Below, piece by piece: positions 34,298 to 45,829 of a stretch of 64,000 bases of DNA. The DNA is from Candidatus Methanoperedentaceae archaeon. Its GTDB lineage: Archaea; Halobacteriota; Methanosarcinia; Methanosarcinales; Methanoperedenaceae. The number at the start of each line of letters is the position of its first letter. The first letter of the stretch is position 1. Under the pieces are notes generated by a model that made no database searches, was not told the origin of the DNA, and saw nothing but the letters and a program-made list of their open reading frames with translations. A program made the translations under genes and the position numbers. The stretch covers positions 1 to 64,000 of the forward strand of contig PQAS01000048.1 in assembly GCA_003104905.1 (NCBI GenBank), given 5' to 3'.

Positions 34298-35512
34298 ATG
34301 ACTAAACGAATATTAAGTGTTGCGTTAGCAGTGTTAATGCTAATAACAATAGCATTTACTGCAAGCGCAGCGACAGATGTAACAAAAGTGGAGGTCCGAG
34401 GTACTGTATTTGATGCAGAACCAGCAAGTCAGGCCGCTGTAACGCCTACCTGGAATGCTCAGACATTTGCCGGATTCTTCTATGATTTGAAGTATAACAG
34501 ATCAACTGAGACGATGTATATCCAGGAAACCCTGGCTGCACTTCAGACTAACAAGACAATTCAGGAAAAGAAATTGTACTACGAAACAGGAAAGGCCCTG
34601 ATTCAGTTCAAAGTGAATGAGAAAGAAGCCAATGTAACAGTAGATGGCGAAGAAAATTATTCACTCGTAGGCTGGCAGGCTGAGAAATGGATCGCAGTCA
34701 ATGATGTAGCCAATAAGATTGCCAAACTTGCCTTTGAGATGGGTAAGGATGACAAGAAGACACTCGCAACAGGCGAGACCTGGGCACTTGGCTCTGGCTA
34801 TGAGTTAACAATCAATGCCGTAGATGCAAGAGCATCACCAAGACAGGTATGGTTCACACTGAAGAAAGATGGAGCTTTAATCGATGAAGGCATCGGTCAG
34901 GCCCCAACAGATAGCACATCAACAGCTAAACAGAAGGCAGTATACTACAAGAAAGCAACAATTCTTGGCGAAAGCGATTCACTTCTGTTCACAGTATATG
35001 TTGATTCAATCTTCTCAGGCTCGGCCTCAGACATGGTACAGTTCAAGTACGCATGGCTGATCGACCAGGGTTCTGCAAAAGAAATAAAAGGTTCAGATAT
35101 TTATGGAGCCTTTGAAGTTACACAAGCCACTTCCGAAAAGATTGTACTCTATAACAAGAACTCGGTAAGCTTGTCCCAGAATACTGAAACAACCTTAATG
35201 GGAGATATGAAATTCAAGACCGCAGACTCTACGAAACTCAGATTCTACCCCAAGGTTGACTACGTAATCTCAGGAAATGTAACAACACCTTCAGGAACCG
35301 GAACAGCCACAGTAAAGGGAACTGCAAAGGCAACAACAAACGTGACCTCAAACGTCACCGCAGTTGCGCCAACAGTAGTTGCACCAACAGCTGTACAAAC
35401 CACAGAATCAAAACCAACAACAGCACCAACAACAGTGCCTGGTTTTGAGGCAGCGTTTGCAATTGCAGGCTTGCTTGCAGTAGCATACATCGTGTTGAGA
35501 CAGAGAAAGTAA
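34298..35512 (+). CDS. S-layer protein with PGF-CTERM anchor signal
   Basis: 404 residues: signal peptide (about 1-24, ending AFTASA), one Methanosarcina-type S-layer duplication (DUF1608) domain (about 28-320; WNAQTFAGFFYDLKYNRSTE, YSLVGWQAEKWIAVND, VYVDSIFSG), a Thr/Ala/Pro-rich stalk with N-x-T sites (about 322-378), and a C-terminal PGFEAAFAIAGLLAV segment with a basic end, the PGF-CTERM signal. ArtA encoded at 27278 is the expected processing enzyme. The strong ribosome site, long leader and terminator suggest high expression, so it may be a main S-layer component. Confidence 0.92.
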   Translation: MTKRILSVALAVLMLITIAFTASAATDVTKVEVRGTVFDAEPASQAAVTPTWNAQTFAGFFYDLKYNRSTETMYIQETLAALQTNKTIQEKKLYYETGKALIQFKVNEKEANVTVDGEENYSLVGWQAEKWIAVNDVANKIAKLAFEMGKDDKKTLATGETWALGSGYELTINAVDARASPRQVWFTLKKDGALIDEGIGQAPTDSTSTAKQKAVYYKKATILGESDSLLFTVYVDSIFSGSASDMVQFKYAWLIDQGSAKEIKGSDIYGAFEVTQATSEKIVLYNKNSVSLSQNTETTLMGDMKFKTADSTKLRFYPKVDYVISGNVTTPSGTGTATVKGTAKATTNVTSNVTAVAPTVVAPTAVQTTESKPTTAPTTVPGFEAAFAIAGLLAVAYIVLRQRK

Positions 35513-39377: not shown

Positions 39378-40517
39378 ATGAATATGCCTTCCAAACATAT
39401 TGGAGAAGAACTTAGGGAGATCATAAAGAACGTTCGGGGTGGATCTTTAGAATACAGGAATAGGGATGAAGCTGAAACAGACTGGGCCAAATATGACTCT
39501 TCTCAGATCAAAGAAATGGCAAACTACTTGGACAATTTAAGGGGTATAGTTGATGAGGCTGACAGAAGAATACGAGGTAGAACTAAAGCTGAAAAACGTG
39601 GCCCAGGGAGACCAGAAACTAATCCTGCGGATATTGCTAAAACACTTATTTTACAGACATACACACAATCGCCTAACAGAGTTGCAGAAGGTTTGTTGCT
39701 TCTGTTTCGAGAGAAATTAGGTATAAGCGAGCATTTTACATACAAGACAATCGAACGAGGTTATGATCGGGATGGAGTCAATAAAATTCTGGATGAAGTC
39801 GTGGCAATTACCAATGAATGTGTAGAAAATGAGGAAAAAACTTGTTCATTTGATGGTACAGGTTTTAGTGCTTCCAATAAGGAAAATTATGCGGCAAAAA
39901 GGCAAAAACAGAATTCAATTAAGAATCTGAAGAAAACACAGTCTGTAAATAATGAACAATGTCATGATAGTTTTCCGATTTCAGATTCAACTTCAAAAAT
40001 GGGCTTTTCCTATTGTGTAATGGGTATAGGAGTCCAACATAAGTTAATTTCAGGAATGTCTGTTAGCCCTGATCATTCTATTGGTGAAACCACAATGTTT
40101 CCAGATGTCTATTATCAGACTCTGCAAAATTATCCGAATTTAGAAAATGCCCTCGGAGATGGGATATATTCTGCTCGCTGGATTACGGATATTGTTTCGA
40201 AAAGCAATGTTACTCCATACTTTTTACCAAAAAGTAATGTAACTTTCCAAAGCAAAGGATATGCGGGATGGTATGATATGCTCTTCTCGTTATGGAATGA
40301 TTCTCAAATGTGGTTGGAACACTATCATATGCGATCAATTTCAGAAACTGTGAATTCGATGGTTAAGTGTCGATTTGGGGCAACTCTAAGGAAAAGACTT
40401 GATCCCAGAAAAGCAACTGAAACTAAGTTGAAACTTGTAGCCCATAATATCAGAAGGATTGGCTACATTGAGATTTTGAATGGCATCAAACCTCATTGGC
40501 CAAGGAATGGGGGTTAG
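39378..40517 (+). CDS. DDE transposase of the insertion sequence
   Basis: 379 residues (a second in-frame ATG at 39384 could also serve). N-terminal helical region with a GRGRPE-like basic stretch (KRGPGRPE), then a DDE/RNase H fold: first Asp in SFDGTGF, second in GDGIYSAR, Glu in RSISETVNS. The ORF is intact and the element has matching ends and a target duplication, so it may still be active. Probably transcribed nearly leaderless from the TATA-like element at 39355-39366. Confidence 0.9.
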   Translation: MNMPSKHIGEELREIIKNVRGGSLEYRNRDEAETDWAKYDSSQIKEMANYLDNLRGIVDEADRRIRGRTKAEKRGPGRPETNPADIAKTLILQTYTQSPNRVAEGLLLLFREKLGISEHFTYKTIERGYDRDGVNKILDEVVAITNECVENEEKTCSFDGTGFSASNKENYAAKRQKQNSIKNLKKTQSVNNEQCHDSFPISDSTSKMGFSYCVMGIGVQHKLISGMSVSPDHSIGETTMFPDVYYQTLQNYPNLENALGDGIYSARWITDIVSKSNVTPYFLPKSNVTFQSKGYAGWYDMLFSLWNDSQMWLEHYHMRSISETVNSMVKCRFGATLRKRLDPRKATETKLKLVAHNIRRIGYIEILNGIKPHWPRNGG

Positions 40518-41305: not shown

Positions 41306-42130
41306 ATGGAAAAAAAAATAGAGATTAGTAAGAGGAGAAAACTGCTGGCAAGTATTATGATATTGGTCATAACATTTCCAATATCAATAGTGCAAGCTGC
41401 AGACGACGCAAATAACAAAGAGGTCGGAGTAGAATGGGTGTGGAACTACGCCTCCTGTGGCATTGGTAGTGTATCTAACACAGGAACTGACGCACAGGGG
41501 TTCTATAATGCCCTCGGAAATATAGGCTGGACCAGAGTTTTTAACTGGGGAAATGGCAATGCATGGGAATCAGACTTTGAAAAAGCAGCTGTTGGAGGTT
41601 CAGATAATTTCTATGCAGATGCTGTCGACTTTGCATATTTCGCTGGACACGGATCGCCGAGTGCCTTCTATTTTGGAACTCCTCACGACGGAGATGGAGC
41701 CTGGACATGTCGAGTTCATACATCAGAAGCATCCTGGGGAGAAACTGATCTGGAATGGCTGGTCTTAAAAGCCTGTCAAACACTTCAATTTTCTGATTGG
41801 GGTGTGTTTGATCGATGGAGACCTGCATTCCAGGGTTTGCATCAGATTCTAGGCTATGATACAATTGCCTATGATACTACAAATACGGGAAGTACATTTG
41901 TAAAACATATGACGGGATATTGGACCGGATTTTGGTTCTGGCAGACATGGCATCCACCCAAGCAGATAAAAAATGCATGGTGGCAGGCAAACATAGATAC
42001 TCAACCGTCAGATGTCTGGTCAGCAACTTTGTCTACTTGTGATAGCTGGAATGACTATCTGCCAGGATATGGCAGCGTAAGCAGTGATGCAAGCAGTTCA
42101 TGCATGATTTGGCAAAGGATACAATCTTAA
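41306..42130 (+). CDS. Secreted DUF6345 (caspase/gingipain-like) protein
   Basis: 274 residues with signal peptide (about 12-32, ending VQAAD). The mature part has FAYFAGHGSP and, about 50 residues later, LKACQTL, a His...Cys dyad arrangement like clan CD peptidases (gingipain, caspase). Many Trp and Gly residues. The family is DUF6345 by pattern memory; activity unproven. GAGGTGAAACC precedes the ATG. The gene is followed after 15 bases by the propeptide-like gene, forming an operon. Confidence 0.68.
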   Translation: MEKKIEISKRRKLLASIMILVITFPISIVQAADDANNKEVGVEWVWNYASCGIGSVSNTGTDAQGFYNALGNIGWTRVFNWGNGNAWESDFEKAAVGGSDNFYADAVDFAYFAGHGSPSAFYFGTPHDGDGAWTCRVHTSEASWGETDLEWLVLKACQTLQFSDWGVFDRWRPAFQGLHQILGYDTIAYDTTNTGSTFVKHMTGYWTGFWFWQTWHPPKQIKNAWWQANIDTQPSDVWSATLSTCDSWNDYLPGYGSVSSDASSSCMIWQRIQS

Positions 42131-42145: not shown

Positions 42146-43000
42146 ATGAAATATTCAAAATATATTCTTGCTGTGTTATTTATAGGAATAGCATCGATAG
42201 GAATTATAGGGGCTAATGACATGATGAGGAGTGAAATTCAAGTGCCATTGCCTCAGGTGACTGAGAAAGTAGAACTCAGGATGGCTTTACCGGATGTACC
42301 TGATAAAGTCTTCATTCTAAGCATTGAGGATAAGCAGCTCGATGATGTGAAAGCCAAGAAAATTGCTGAAAGAGTTATTGGAAACAATAAGACAAACAAA
42401 TCATTGAAACTTTTCAGTAAAGGACAAATGAAATATTCAACAGGAAAAGAATGGACAGATAACTTCACCAAAAAAGAGCTACTAAACGAAGAACAGGCCA
42501 AAACCAAAGCCCTGGGATATATCAAAAAGCTCGCTAAAGAAGATTTGATCGATACCAATATGGTCAATTCTTCAAAACTGGAAGTTGTATATGATGAGAC
42601 TTTTGTGATCAAAGATGGAAAGAGTGAAAGCTTTGTAACCAATCAGCATATCAACATGCCCCTTTCGGTTGATGGAATACCTCTGCATGGCGGGGGCGCA
42701 AAAGTCAGGGTCTATCTGGTAAAAGGTGGAGAGATGGCAGGACTTACGAACGGTGTGGGTAAACTAAAAAAGGATAAGCAAGTCCCCATAATAACTCCTG
42801 ATGAAGCTATAAATTCACTGAAAGAGAATGGCTATAAGAATATGACAATAGATTCATTGGAACTGGCATACGAAGTGCTTCCGCCGGAAGAAAATGAGTC
42901 CTTTGTATATCCTACCTATGTATTCAAAGGTGTATTGCATGGACCTGAGGGAGATAATGTGAGCTTCTATACGAATGTACCCGCTGTAAGAAAAGAATGA
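42146..43000 (+). CDS. Exported PepSY/FTP-like protein, partner of DUF6345 protein
   Basis: 284 residues with an N-terminal signal (about 1-23, ending GIIGAND). The charged middle part and a C-terminal module (ITPDEAINSLKENGYKNMTIDSLELAYEV) recall the PepSY/FTP propeptides that fold or inhibit secreted peptidases. It directly follows the DUF6345 gene with GAGAGGTGAAAG as ribosome site. A chaperone/inhibitor made in trans for that protein is the likely role, inferred from context. Confidence 0.6.
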   Translation: MKYSKYILAVLFIGIASIGIIGANDMMRSEIQVPLPQVTEKVELRMALPDVPDKVFILSIEDKQLDDVKAKKIAERVIGNNKTNKSLKLFSKGQMKYSTGKEWTDNFTKKELLNEEQAKTKALGYIKKLAKEDLIDTNMVNSSKLEVVYDETFVIKDGKSESFVTNQHINMPLSVDGIPLHGGGAKVRVYLVKGGEMAGLTNGVGKLKKDKQVPIITPDEAINSLKENGYKNMTIDSLELAYEVLPPEENESFVYPTYVFKGVLHGPEGDNVSFYTNVPAVRKE

Positions 43001-43033: not shown

Positions 43034-45829
43034 CTACCAGGAGGTTTGATATTTATTTTTATTGAATAATTTGAAAATGGAAGTAGATGTTATTCCCTGT
43101 GTTGATGTCATTTCAGACGTTTGTGTTATTTCCGGTGCAGGTGTAGGCGTGGGTAAGGGTGTAGCGGGTGCAGGTGTAGGCGTGGGTAAAGGTGTAGAGG
43201 GTGCAGGTGTAGGCGTGGGTGAGGGTGTAGAGGGTGCGGGTGTAGTTACTTTGAAGGGATTTGAATGGCAATTATCACAAAATGTTGCTATTGTATGACA
43301 TCCGCTACAGGCGGAAACACTTGCAACTTTTTTATGAACTTTTTTCCAATTACTTGCATGTGGGTATATCCCGGTTGTAGGTGCGGGTAAGGGTGTAGTA
43401 GGTGCAGGTGTCAGGGTAGGTGGCGATGTATTTGAAGGATAAATTGTATATGTTTCGATTTTTGGTGTACTCCATGTTGGATTCTCATGTTTCCATGTCA
43501 ATACCAGGCTATTTTCAGTAGTATATGTATATGTGATAGATGCATACGGGTCTTCTCCATCCACGGTTTTCCGGCCGGATACCCCGGCATTGACATGATA
43601 CACACCGTCCACAGTATTTACTGCCGCGTAATGTGTATGCGCACCGATGAATATCTTTACGTCTTTCGAAACGAATAGATTCTGGAGTTTATCCCTATTG
43701 GCTTTATTTGCATCCAGGGAATCTCCCACATGTCTTTTAGTCGGATATAACGGTTCATGACCAAGAACTATTTTATAGTTAGCTGTTCCGGACAAATCCG
43801 TACTCATCCAGTTATAAAGGGCATCCGGTACGTAACCATTACCATATGCATCATTGTTTTTTCCATCCCAATATTCGTTCATGTTAACAATATGTATTCC
43901 ACCGACATCAACGGAATATGTCGTTTTTTCGGTCCCTGTGGGGCCTCGATTGACTGGCAAGTTAAGTGTCATGGCTTTAATTGCCGCCACATCACCTGAT
44001 GTATCAACTTCGTGATTTCCAACTACATAGAAAATAGGTATATTATTTACATTCGATGCAGAATACGCCTGTTGAGTCTGAGGTATCTTATCCATGTCAC
44101 CAATCATAAATATAGCATCAACCTTACCTGTTGGTGATTGTGGAATAACTTGATTGAAATCTTTTGTTAATTCGCTTATTCCTGAAGTTCCAAATTTAGA
44201 TGGTCTTGCATCACCAAGATATGCGATTGTTGAGCCTGCTGTTACAATCGGCGTGGGTGCAGGCATGGTTGTTGGTTCGGGTAATGGCGTGGCAGGTACA
44301 GGCAATGGTGGAGTAGCTGCAGGTGTGTTATTCAAATCCAGTGTTACATCATCCATCCAGAACGTTCCATAGCCACCCCAGATACTGGCATAGAAGTAAA
44401 TATATGAAGTATCCGCCCCTGTCTGGAATTCCAATGTTTTTTGTTCCCAGTCATTTGTACCTCTGCTGAATAATGGAAGGTTGGTCAGTCGCAGCAAATT
44501 CTTATCAGAATTCAGCTCGCCGAATGTGATGGTTGGCAGATTAGTGCCTTCTGTACCCAGGGTTTTTCCCCATGTGGAGAATGTATAATTCGTAAATGGT
44601 TGTGCACTTATTTTTTCAGATTCCGGGTATCCGGATATAATATCAATAGTTCCGGGGATGTTTATTTCTACGGATTTTGAACCGCTATGGGAGATATTGG
44701 ACCATGCCGGGGTATTGCCATACCTATTCACAAAAGTCCAGTTCAATGGAGCGGTTGTTCCGCTTTCAAAGCCAGGATTTAATACCATGTTATTTTTCAA
44801 GCTTAGAGTAACATCATCCATCCAGAAAGTTCCATAACCGCCCGGGATACTGGCATAGAAGTAAATATATGAAGTATCCGCCCCTGTCTGGAATACCAGT
44901 GTTTTTTGTTCCCAGTCATTTGTATCTCTGCTGAATAATGGAAGGTTGGTCAGTCGCAGCAAATTCTTATTAGAATTCAGCTCGCCGAATGTGATAGTTG
45001 GCAGATTCGTGCCGTTTGCGCCCTGGGTTTTCCCCCATGCAGAGAATAGATAAGCTGTAAATGGCTGTACACTTATTCTTTCCGATTTCGGATATCCGGA
45101 TATAAGATCAATAGTTCCGGGGATGTTTATTTCTACGGATTTTGAACTGTTGTGGGAGATATCGGACCATATAGGGGTGTTACCATTCAGGCTAATAAAT
45201 GTCCAGTTCAGCGGAGCTGTTGTTCCGCTTTCAAAACCAGGATTTGCTACCATATTGGTTTTCAAGCTCAGTGTTATGTCATCCATCCAGAACGTTCCAT
45301 AGCCGCCCCAGATATTGGCATATACGTAAATATATGAAGTATCTGCCCCTGTCTGGAATTCCAATGTTTTTTGTTCCCAGTCATTTGTACCTCTGGTGAA
45401 TACGGGAAGGCTGGTCAGTCGCAGCAAATTCTTATTTGCATCAAGCTCACCTAATCTGATAGTTGGCAGATTCGTGCCGTCTGCGCCCTGGGTTTTCCCC
45501 CATGCAGAGAAGGTATAAGTTGTAGATGGCTGTACACTTATTCTTTCCGATTCCGGGTATCCCGAATTAAGATCTGCTGTTCCGGGGATGTTTATTTCTA
45601 CGGATTTTTGACCGGAGTGGGAAATATTTGACCATACCGGGATATTATCATTTGTAGACACAAATGTCCAGTTCAGTGGAGCTGTTGTTCCATCTTCAAA
45701 ACCGGGATTTACAAGAATATTTGATTCCGGATATGCTGCTGCAACGGGGTAAATTAGAAAGAGACCAAAAATTATAAGTGCTTTTATAATCAATGTAATA
45801 GTCCTGACTCTTTTCGCCATCAAATCCAT
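43034..45829 (-). CDS. Secreted metallophosphoesterase with three carbohydrate-binding-like repeats and two c-type heme motifs
   Basis: 931 residues. Signal peptide (1-33); three near-identical 155-residue beta-sandwich repeats (about 38-500), each opening NPGFE-G-T-APLNWTF and closing GTFWMDD-TL, like CBM/discoidin modules; Pro-rich linker; calcineurin-like/purple acid phosphatase-like domain (about 525-770) with YLGDAR, IGDMD, GNHEVD, LGHEPLY and GAHTHY; a short segment with CSGCH and CDNCH (codons near 43298-43312 and 43265-43279); then a Pro/Thr tail from a 33-bp repeat and a short basic end. The first metal motif has GD-x-R rather than GD-x-H. Heme attachment is predicted from the motifs only. 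GGAGAT precedes ATG 45829. Confidence 0.85.
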   Translation of the reverse strand: MDLMAKRVRTITLIIKALIIFGLFLIYPVAAAYPESNILVNPGFEDGTTAPLNWTFVSTNDNIPVWSNISHSGQKSVEINIPGTADLNSGYPESERISVQPSTTYTFSAWGKTQGADGTNLPTIRLGELDANKNLLRLTSLPVFTRGTNDWEQKTLEFQTGADTSYIYVYANIWGGYGTFWMDDITLSLKTNMVANPGFESGTTAPLNWTFISLNGNTPIWSDISHNSSKSVEINIPGTIDLISGYPKSERISVQPFTAYLFSAWGKTQGANGTNLPTITFGELNSNKNLLRLTNLPLFSRDTNDWEQKTLVFQTGADTSYIYFYASIPGGYGTFWMDDVTLSLKNNMVLNPGFESGTTAPLNWTFVNRYGNTPAWSNISHSGSKSVEINIPGTIDIISGYPESEKISAQPFTNYTFSTWGKTLGTEGTNLPTITFGELNSDKNLLRLTNLPLFSRGTNDWEQKTLEFQTGADTSYIYFYASIWGGYGTFWMDDVTLDLNNTPAATPPLPVPATPLPEPTTMPAPTPIVTAGSTIAYLGDARPSKFGTSGISELTKDFNQVIPQSPTGKVDAIFMIGDMDKIPQTQQAYSASNVNNIPIFYVVGNHEVDTSGDVAAIKAMTLNLPVNRGPTGTEKTTYSVDVGGIHIVNMNEYWDGKNNDAYGNGYVPDALYNWMSTDLSGTANYKIVLGHEPLYPTKRHVGDSLDANKANRDKLQNLFVSKDVKIFIGAHTHYAAVNTVDGVYHVNAGVSGRKTVDGEDPYASITYTYTTENSLVLTWKHENPTWSTPKIETYTIYPSNTSPPTLTPAPTTPLPAPTTGIYPHASNWKKVHKKVASVSACSGCHTIATFCDNCHSNPFKVTTPAPSTPSPTPTPAPSTPLPTPTPAPATPLPTPTPAPEITQTSEMTSTQGITSTSIFKLFNKNKYQTSW
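43134..43245. repeat. 33-bp tandem repeat encoding a Pro-rich stalk
   Basis: Three full copies of a 33-base unit (starting ggtgcaggtgtaggcgtggg at 43134) and part of a fourth, read on the minus strand as repeated PTPTPAP(S/A)TPLP. Likely to vary in copy number. Confidence 0.85.
44320..45725. repeat. Three tandem 465-bp coding repeats
   Basis: Matching segments recur with a spacing of exactly 465 bases; the segment ending in atccatccagaa recurs from 44346, 44811 and 45276. They encode the three 155-residue modules of the metallophosphoesterase protein. DNA identity between copies is high, suggesting recent duplication or gene conversion. Confidence 0.85.

What the first reader, a model, noticed from the sequence alone, without database searches (positions are those of the whole stretch)
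43034..45829. Secreted metallophosphoesterase fused to a two-heme c-type cytochrome segment and triplicated binding modules
Seen: three 155-residue repeats, a calcineurin-like domain, then CSGCH and CDNCH within about 16 residues, preceded by a His (VHKK) that could be an axial ligand. Known: CxxCH attaches heme c, and some anaerobic methane-oxidising archaea are rich in extracellular cytochromes. Inference: an outer-surface enzyme tethered to, or sensing, the extracellular electron network. I know of no described family with this combination.
Basis: partly seen in the sequence, partly recalled or inferred. Interest (0 to 1): 0.62.

Follow-up and report, generated by a model that had tools for sequence, protein, structure and literature searches.

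The report
Secreted phosphoesterase with two-heme tail
A methane-oxidising archaeon encodes a secreted protein in which three sugar-binding modules and a phosphate-cleaving enzyme domain are joined to a short tail that very probably carries two hemes, a combination I found described nowhere and that would physically link an extracellular phosphatase to the cell's electron-carrying surface.

Summary
ORF 43034-45829 (-), 931 aa, has a signal peptide, three CBM_4_9 repeats, a calcineurin-like phosphoesterase (fold nearest to purple acid phosphatase/GpdQ), a Pro/Thr linker, CSGCH-x5-CDNCH and a Pro/Thr tail. The only four Cys are all in the two motifs. The 38-residue heme module matches the C-terminal two-heme end of a 12-heme cytochrome found in almost every Methanoperedens genome; shared positions include both CxxCH and two upstream His (possible distal ligands). 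The same architecture, in the same neighbourhood, occurs in Methanoperedens sp. RBG 1, and the module is under strong purifying selection (10 synonymous, 2 non-synonymous changes in 43 codons). Ccm genes are present. Both species have many CBM/phosphoesterase paralogues without hemes, so the module is a graft onto a shuffled surface-protein family. I accept heme c attachment (about 0.85). That the hemes dock or wire the enzyme to the extracellular cytochrome network is inference; redox control of the metal site is untested. I rate it a new domain combination of known parts, in two sister species, with precedents in ANME MHC-C (pectin-lyase domain plus hemes) and Teredinibacter CBM-cytochrome proteins. 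Structure prediction did not resolve the heme segment.

The parts
43034..45829 (-). Whole gene: signal peptide, 3x CBM_4_9, calcineurin-like phosphoesterase, two-heme module, Pro/Thr tail; 931 aa
45734..45829 (-). N-terminal hydrophobic signal sequence (about residues 1-32)
   Evidence: read from the sequence; 64-69% identical to the start of beta-helix paralogues; no cleavage-site program available
45260..45724 (-). CBM_4_9 repeat 1 (residues 36-190)
   Evidence: fold nearest to porphyran-binding CBM and CBM16
44795..45259 (-). CBM_4_9 repeat 2 (residues 191-345)
44330..44794 (-). CBM_4_9 repeat 3 (residues 346-500)
43436..44236 (-). Metallophosphoesterase domain (residues 532-798): D540 (DxR instead of DxH), D578, N605, H691, H731, H733
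   Evidence: PF00149 E 3.1e-10; profile matches purple acid phosphatases E about 1e-6; Foldseek PAP and GpdQ E about 1e-10; motif residues invariant in alignment A4
43364..43435 (-). Pro/Thr-rich linker (residues 799-822)
   Evidence: pLDDT below 50
43250..43363 (-). Two-heme module PHASNWKKVHKKVASVSACSGCHTIATFCDNCHSNPF (residues 823-860 with the next residue)
43295..43309 (-). First heme c motif, CSGCH (residues 841-845)
43265..43279 (-). Second heme c motif, CDNCH (residues 851-855)
43037..43249 (-). C-terminal Pro/Thr-rich tail, no transmembrane segment seen (residues 861-931)

Best explanation
It is a secreted phosphoesterase of the cell-surface or exopolysaccharide matrix of a Methanoperedens archaeon. 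Three tandem carbohydrate-binding modules hold it in glycan, and a two-metal phosphoesterase domain cleaves phosphate esters there. A C-terminal mini-cytochrome on a flexible linker carries two covalent c hemes, most likely each with two His ligands. The module descends from, or shares descent with, the C-terminal two-heme end of a multiheme cytochrome. It was joined to one member of a domain-shuffling family of CBM/phosphoesterase proteins before the split of the window species and RBG 1. The most likely use of the hemes is to dock the enzyme on, and exchange electrons with, the extracellular multiheme cytochromes. Shown by sequence: architecture, conservation, homology of the heme module, Ccm genes. 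Inferred: heme loading, His/His ligation, phosphatase activity, glycan target, docking and electron exchange. Probability of two attached hemes about 0.85; of docking or electron exchange given hemes about 0.55.
For: All four Cys of the protein lie in the two CxxCH. The module aligns to the end of a 12-CxxCH cytochrome family, with H824, W828, H832, K833, both CxxCH and F850 among the invariant positions. Over 25 such cytochromes of equal spacing the equivalent H, P, W, H, K, F and both CxxCH are 25 of 25. A model of both groups matches in 29 of 31 Methanoperedens genomes and in 2 further genomes of the family, and in none of the other genomes of the class. The orthologue in RBG 1 has the same order, between TerC and LarC neighbours as here. 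In the module dN 0.020 against dS 0.53 (10 synonymous, 2 non-synonymous). Three CcmE and ten Cytochrom_C_asm matches lie in the genome. At the 23 genomic sites with closely paired CxxCH, the reading frame with paired CxxCH there is a cytochrome with six or more motifs, except this gene and one secreted 302-aa two-heme protein.
Against: AlphaFold2 gives no structure for the heme segment (pLDDT below 50). Only two genomes hold the architecture, so conservation is shallow. Motif I of the phosphoesterase is DAR, not DxH, and catalytic competence is unproven. Nothing shows cell-surface location other than the signal sequence and the CBMs. No transcript or protein data were available.
Confidence: 0.5

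Rival explanations
1. The hemes are attached but serve only as a structural or adhesive module: a matrix phosphatase whose mini-cytochrome binds it to other heme proteins or to iron minerals, with no electron flow that matters.
For: The module is joined through Pro/Thr linkers, separate from the metal site in sequence. Other secreted two-heme modules in the genus are joined to Ig-like or Pro/Thr regions without any enzyme. Phosphoesterase paralogues exist, and presumably work, without hemes.
Against: The homologous module sits in a multiheme cytochrome. Keeping both CxxCH and both His is what electron transfer requires; pure adhesion would not demand it.
Confidence: 0.28
2. Redox switch: the two hemes pass an electron to or from a two-iron site of a purple-acid-phosphatase-like domain, so that phosphatase activity follows the redox state of the extracellular network.
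For: Closest solved structures by sequence profile and by fold are purple acid phosphatases and GpdQ. From general knowledge, Fe(III)-Fe(II) purple acid phosphatases are active and Fe(III)-Fe(III) forms are not.
Against: The Tyr ligand that defines purple acid phosphatases (GDxxY) is absent: the motif here is GDMDK. Motif I is DAR. Metal identity is unknown, and the linker gives no fixed geometry.
Confidence: 0.1
3. The four Cys do not bind heme but make disulfides or a zinc site, so the CxxCH pair is accidental.
For: No heme-segment structure was predicted. Two heme-free paralogues carry a different four-Cys insert (CYVIPGG...CANCGHH...C) between CBM and phosphoesterase.
Against: Homology to the end of a 12-heme cytochrome including both upstream His. 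Paired CxxCH otherwise occur only in cytochromes in this genome, and never in the reversed control. Ccm is present.
Confidence: 0.1

Closest known systems
ANME MHC type C cytochromes (Chadwick et al. 2022, PMC9012536)
   Same: Large secreted ANME proteins that join a carbohydrate-related domain (pectin-lyase-like) to c hemes
   Different: Those are large multiheme cytochromes (the group was picked at more than 10 hemes) and have no CBM_4_9 or phosphoesterase; here two hemes, and the enzyme domain is a phosphoesterase
Teredinibacter turnerae TERTU_3803 / TERTU_2913 (PMC10916295)
   Same: Secreted multidomain proteins with c-type cytochrome domains on flexible linkers; TERTU_3803 also carries CBMs
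   Different: Bacterial, other cytochrome domain types (X183, X132), no phosphoesterase reported; discussed in relation to cellulose chemistry
12-heme cytochrome of Methanoperedens (e.g. G000:C2:22.6 kb, L056:3587-4687)
   Same: Its last about 36 residues, HPxDWxxxHK...CxxCH-x3-FCxDCH, are homologous to the two-heme module
   Different: Membrane-anchored multiheme protein without CBM or phosphoesterase
Purple acid phosphatases and GpdQ glycerophosphodiesterase
   Same: Fold and most metal-ligand motifs of the phosphoesterase domain
   Different: No GDxxY tyrosine; motif I is DAR; about 14% identity by fold alignment
Secreted two-heme + Ig-like proteins of Methanoperedens (G000:C50, G003:C21, G016:C123, G018:C25)
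   Same: Signal peptide and a short two-CxxCH cassette joined to a non-cytochrome extracellular part
   Different: Cassette is N-terminal; no CBM and no enzyme

Membership tests
c-type cytochrome | CxxCH heme attachment motifs on an exported protein | tested here: met
   Two CxxCH after an N-terminal signal-like sequence
c-type cytochrome | Homology to a clear multiheme cytochrome, with candidate distal ligands | tested here: met
   Terminal two-heme segment of the 12-heme family; H824 and H832 equivalents invariant
c-type cytochrome | Heme maturation system in the same genome | tested here: met
   3 CcmE, 10 Cytochrom_C_asm matches
c-type cytochrome | Covalent heme demonstrated | not testable with these tools
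   Needs heme stain or mass spectrometry
Pfam Paired_CXXCH_1 (PF09699) | Score above the curated cut-off | tested here: not met
   8.7 bits against 20.6
Metallophos (PF00149) | Score above the curated cut-off | tested here: met
   41.2 bits against 21.5
Purple acid phosphatase | Metal ligands D, D, N, H, HxH | tested here: met
   Invariant in alignment A4
Purple acid phosphatase | Tyr ligand in GDxxY | tested here: not met
   GDMDK in the window protein; no Tyr at this place in any row
CBM_4_9 (PF02018) | Score above the curated cut-off | tested here: met
   55.7 bits against 25.9, three stretches; fold matches CBM16 and a porphyran-binding CBM
CBM_4_9 (PF02018) | Binds a carbohydrate | not testable with these tools
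   Ligand unknown
ANME MHC type A/B/C | Large multiheme cytochrome with S-layer, peptidase M6-like or pectin-lyase domain | tested here: not met
   Two hemes, no such domain

The most novel reading that the evidence does not exclude
The heme pair sets the oxidation state of the phosphoesterase metal centre, so that phosphate release at the cell surface is switched by the redox state of the extracellular electron network: a hydrolase wired to extracellular electron transfer.
Probability: 0.08. Interest if true: 0.8.

Novelty: new variant of a known kind. Interest (0 to 1): 0.42.

Why it matters
It would extend surface cytochromes of anaerobic methane oxidisers from pure electron wires to tags on hydrolytic enzymes, and would suggest that such archaea mix glycan-binding, enzymatic and heme modules to build an organised electroactive matrix. 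It makes a testable protein: one enzyme activity, two hemes, and a set of heme-free paralogues in the same genome as natural controls (the nearest has a phosphoesterase domain 90% identical).

Tried and rejected
AlphaFold2 of the phosphoesterase plus heme segment gave a good enzyme fold but nothing over the heme module, so disulfide or zinc against heme could not be judged from it. A profile of the module against PDB sequences gave only weak hits (NrfH E 0.06). Pfam and NCBIfam found no family for the module above cut-off. Relatives of the whole protein were absent from viral contigs and phages. Phosphoesterase relatives elsewhere in the phylum are weak, and those read have no CxxCH. I considered an assembly chimera and rejected it: an independent genome, RBG 1, has the same order and neighbours, although its copy is split over two contigs. 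Paper searches for a phosphoesterase joined to a cytochrome found none. From memory, cytochrome c554-type domains may occur with metallophosphoesterases in some bacteria; I could not test this.

Full report
What is there. The ORF at 43034-45829 (-) is intact and codes for 931 aa. In order it holds a hydrophobic signal sequence, three CBM_4_9 repeats with a period of exactly 155 residues, a Pro/Thr linker, a calcineurin-like phosphoesterase, a second Pro/Thr linker, a segment with two CxxCH, and a long Pro/Thr tail.

Chance is excluded. The protein has four Cys in 931 residues and all are in the two motifs. A shuffled protein of this make-up would carry 0.0002 CxxCH on average. In the whole genome, CxxCH pairs 9-30 bases apart occur 23 times against none for the pattern read backwards. 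The reading frame with paired CxxCH found at those places is a cytochrome with at least six CxxCH in every case except this gene and one secreted 302-aa two-heme protein on contig C50. Two of the 23 sites (L189, L191) have a gap that is not a multiple of three and so are not in-frame pairs; the count for these was read from the large cytochrome beside them. Several loci are cut at about 3 kb, so heme counts are lower bounds.

What the heme segment is. A search of the genus with the 41-residue segment finds, besides the orthologue, the C-terminus of a 365-400-aa cytochrome with 12 CxxCH (mostly 36-44% identity, single-sequence E from about 2e-4 to 2e-2; 6e-5 for a shorter relative). Alignment shows the same spaced pattern, HPxDWxxxHK-x7/8-CxxCH-x3-FCxDCH. 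Over 25 of these cytochromes the first His, Pro, Trp, second His, Lys, both CxxCH and Phe are invariant. The window protein keeps all of these but the Pro. A profile of both groups matches in 29 of 31 Methanoperedens genomes and in 2 more of the same family, and nowhere else in 238 genomes of the class. Because the model was built with the window sequence it cannot prove that sequence's own membership, but the single-sequence search does not have that defect. One 12-heme protein scores for class III, c3_2 and c7 families in Pfam. So the segment is best read as a transplanted two-heme end of a cytochrome, not a zinc finger that looks like one. Ccm genes are plentiful: three CcmE and ten Cytochrom_C_asm matches.

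Conservation of the whole. The sister genome Methanoperedens sp. RBG 1 has the same protein: third repeat, phosphoesterase, linker, two-heme module (92% and 95% identity in the last two domains). Its contig break lies in the repeats. One contig runs through TPR, TerC and a peptidase to the first repeat (L143), and the other starts in a later repeat and runs on to LarC (L137), matching the order in the window: LarC, this gene, TerC, TPR. That the two contig ends are one gene is inferred from this order. In the module there are 10 synonymous and 2 non-synonymous changes (dS 0.53, dN 0.02); in the phosphoesterase dS 0.44, dN 0.036. With 43 codons and two species this is strong but shallow evidence of selection. 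No other genome of the genus showed the combination.

The family it was grafted onto. Both genomes hold many paralogues of CBM repeats and phosphoesterase in mixed order, with right-handed beta-helix, 3-keto-disaccharide-hydrolase-like and other partners, and none of those read has CxxCH. The repeats of the window gene are closest to those of beta-helix proteins (77-80%), while its phosphoesterase is 90% identical to that of a paralogue on contig C54 with a different C-terminus. This is a domain-shuffling surface-protein family, and the two-heme end is one of the interchangeable parts.

The enzyme domain. Sequence profile and fold both point to purple acid phosphatases and GpdQ. Metal-ligand motifs D, D, N, H, HxH are invariant among paralogues, so a metal site is likely. 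The His of DxH is Arg here and varies in the family (R, E, H), and the Tyr of purple acid phosphatases is absent; it is therefore not a purple acid phosphatase proper. The CBM repeats fold like CBM16 and a porphyran-binding CBM (from a moderate-confidence model).

How it most likely works. Secretion through the membrane and heme loading on the outside by Ccm; retention in glycan by three binding modules; hydrolysis of phosphate esters; contact with extracellular multiheme cytochromes through the flexible two-heme tail. Only the architecture, the homology of the tail and the maturation genes are shown. Location, activity and electron exchange are inference. Rivals: heme tail as passive docking tag; redox switch on the metal centre; non-heme Cys (unlikely).

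Compared with what is known. Heme proteins with carbohydrate-related domains are known in ANME archaea (MHC-C with pectin-lyase domain, PMC9012536) and in Teredinibacter (CBMs and cytochrome domains on linkers, PMC10916295). I found no report of a phosphoesterase with heme c in the open-access literature searched. I therefore call it a new variant of a known kind: new combination, known parts, two species.

Noticed in passing
G000:C50:114.9 kb (L055:4630-5538), G003:C21 (L147), G016:C123 (L148), G018:C25 (L154): Secreted proteins with an N-terminal two-CxxCH cassette followed by Ig-like or repeat regions; no Pfam family found for the C50 protein. They look like a small unnamed class of surface mini-cytochromes in Methanoperedens.
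   Followed up: partly
L026 / L146 (G002:C27:15370-16709): Two tandem small secreted proteins whose first heme motif is CX3CH (CAGGCH, CAGSCH) rather than CxxCH, with Pro/Thr tails; one also has a further CQLCH motif.
   Followed up: no
L046:4439-6580 and L041:101-2338: Heme-free paralogues carry a four-Cys insert (SCYVIPGGVPSSM..YVGKTVCANCGHH..STWKPCG) between CBM and phosphoesterase, perhaps a zinc or disulfide module.
   Followed up: no
L048:1797-2693 (RBG 1, C2): A three-CxxCH lipoprotein-like protein with weak cytochrome c' / c554 similarity lies near two tandem phosphoesterase paralogues, a second association of this phosphoesterase family with hemes.
   Followed up: partly
window:39000-43000: A transposase-like gene (39378-40517), a DUF4352 protein, a DUF6345 protein (41306-42130) and an unknown secreted protein (42146-43000) lie between LarC and this gene, but are absent at this place in RBG 1.
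   Followed up: partly
window:10194-14099 (-) and 34298-35512 (+): S-layer proteins: a 1301-aa protein with two S-layer domains plus fibronectin-like and other domains, and a 404-aa S-layer protein with PGF-CTERM.
   Followed up: partly
window:49482-63477: Chemotaxis genes (CheD, CheC, CheR, CheA, CheB) followed by archaellum genes and three archaellin-like proteins, all read from sequence.
   Followed up: no
G000:C54 paralogue (L037:7703-10525) vs window phosphoesterase: The phosphoesterase domain is 90% identical to a paralogue while flanking domains are unrelated or much less alike, which suggests recent domain exchange or gene conversion.
   Followed up: partly
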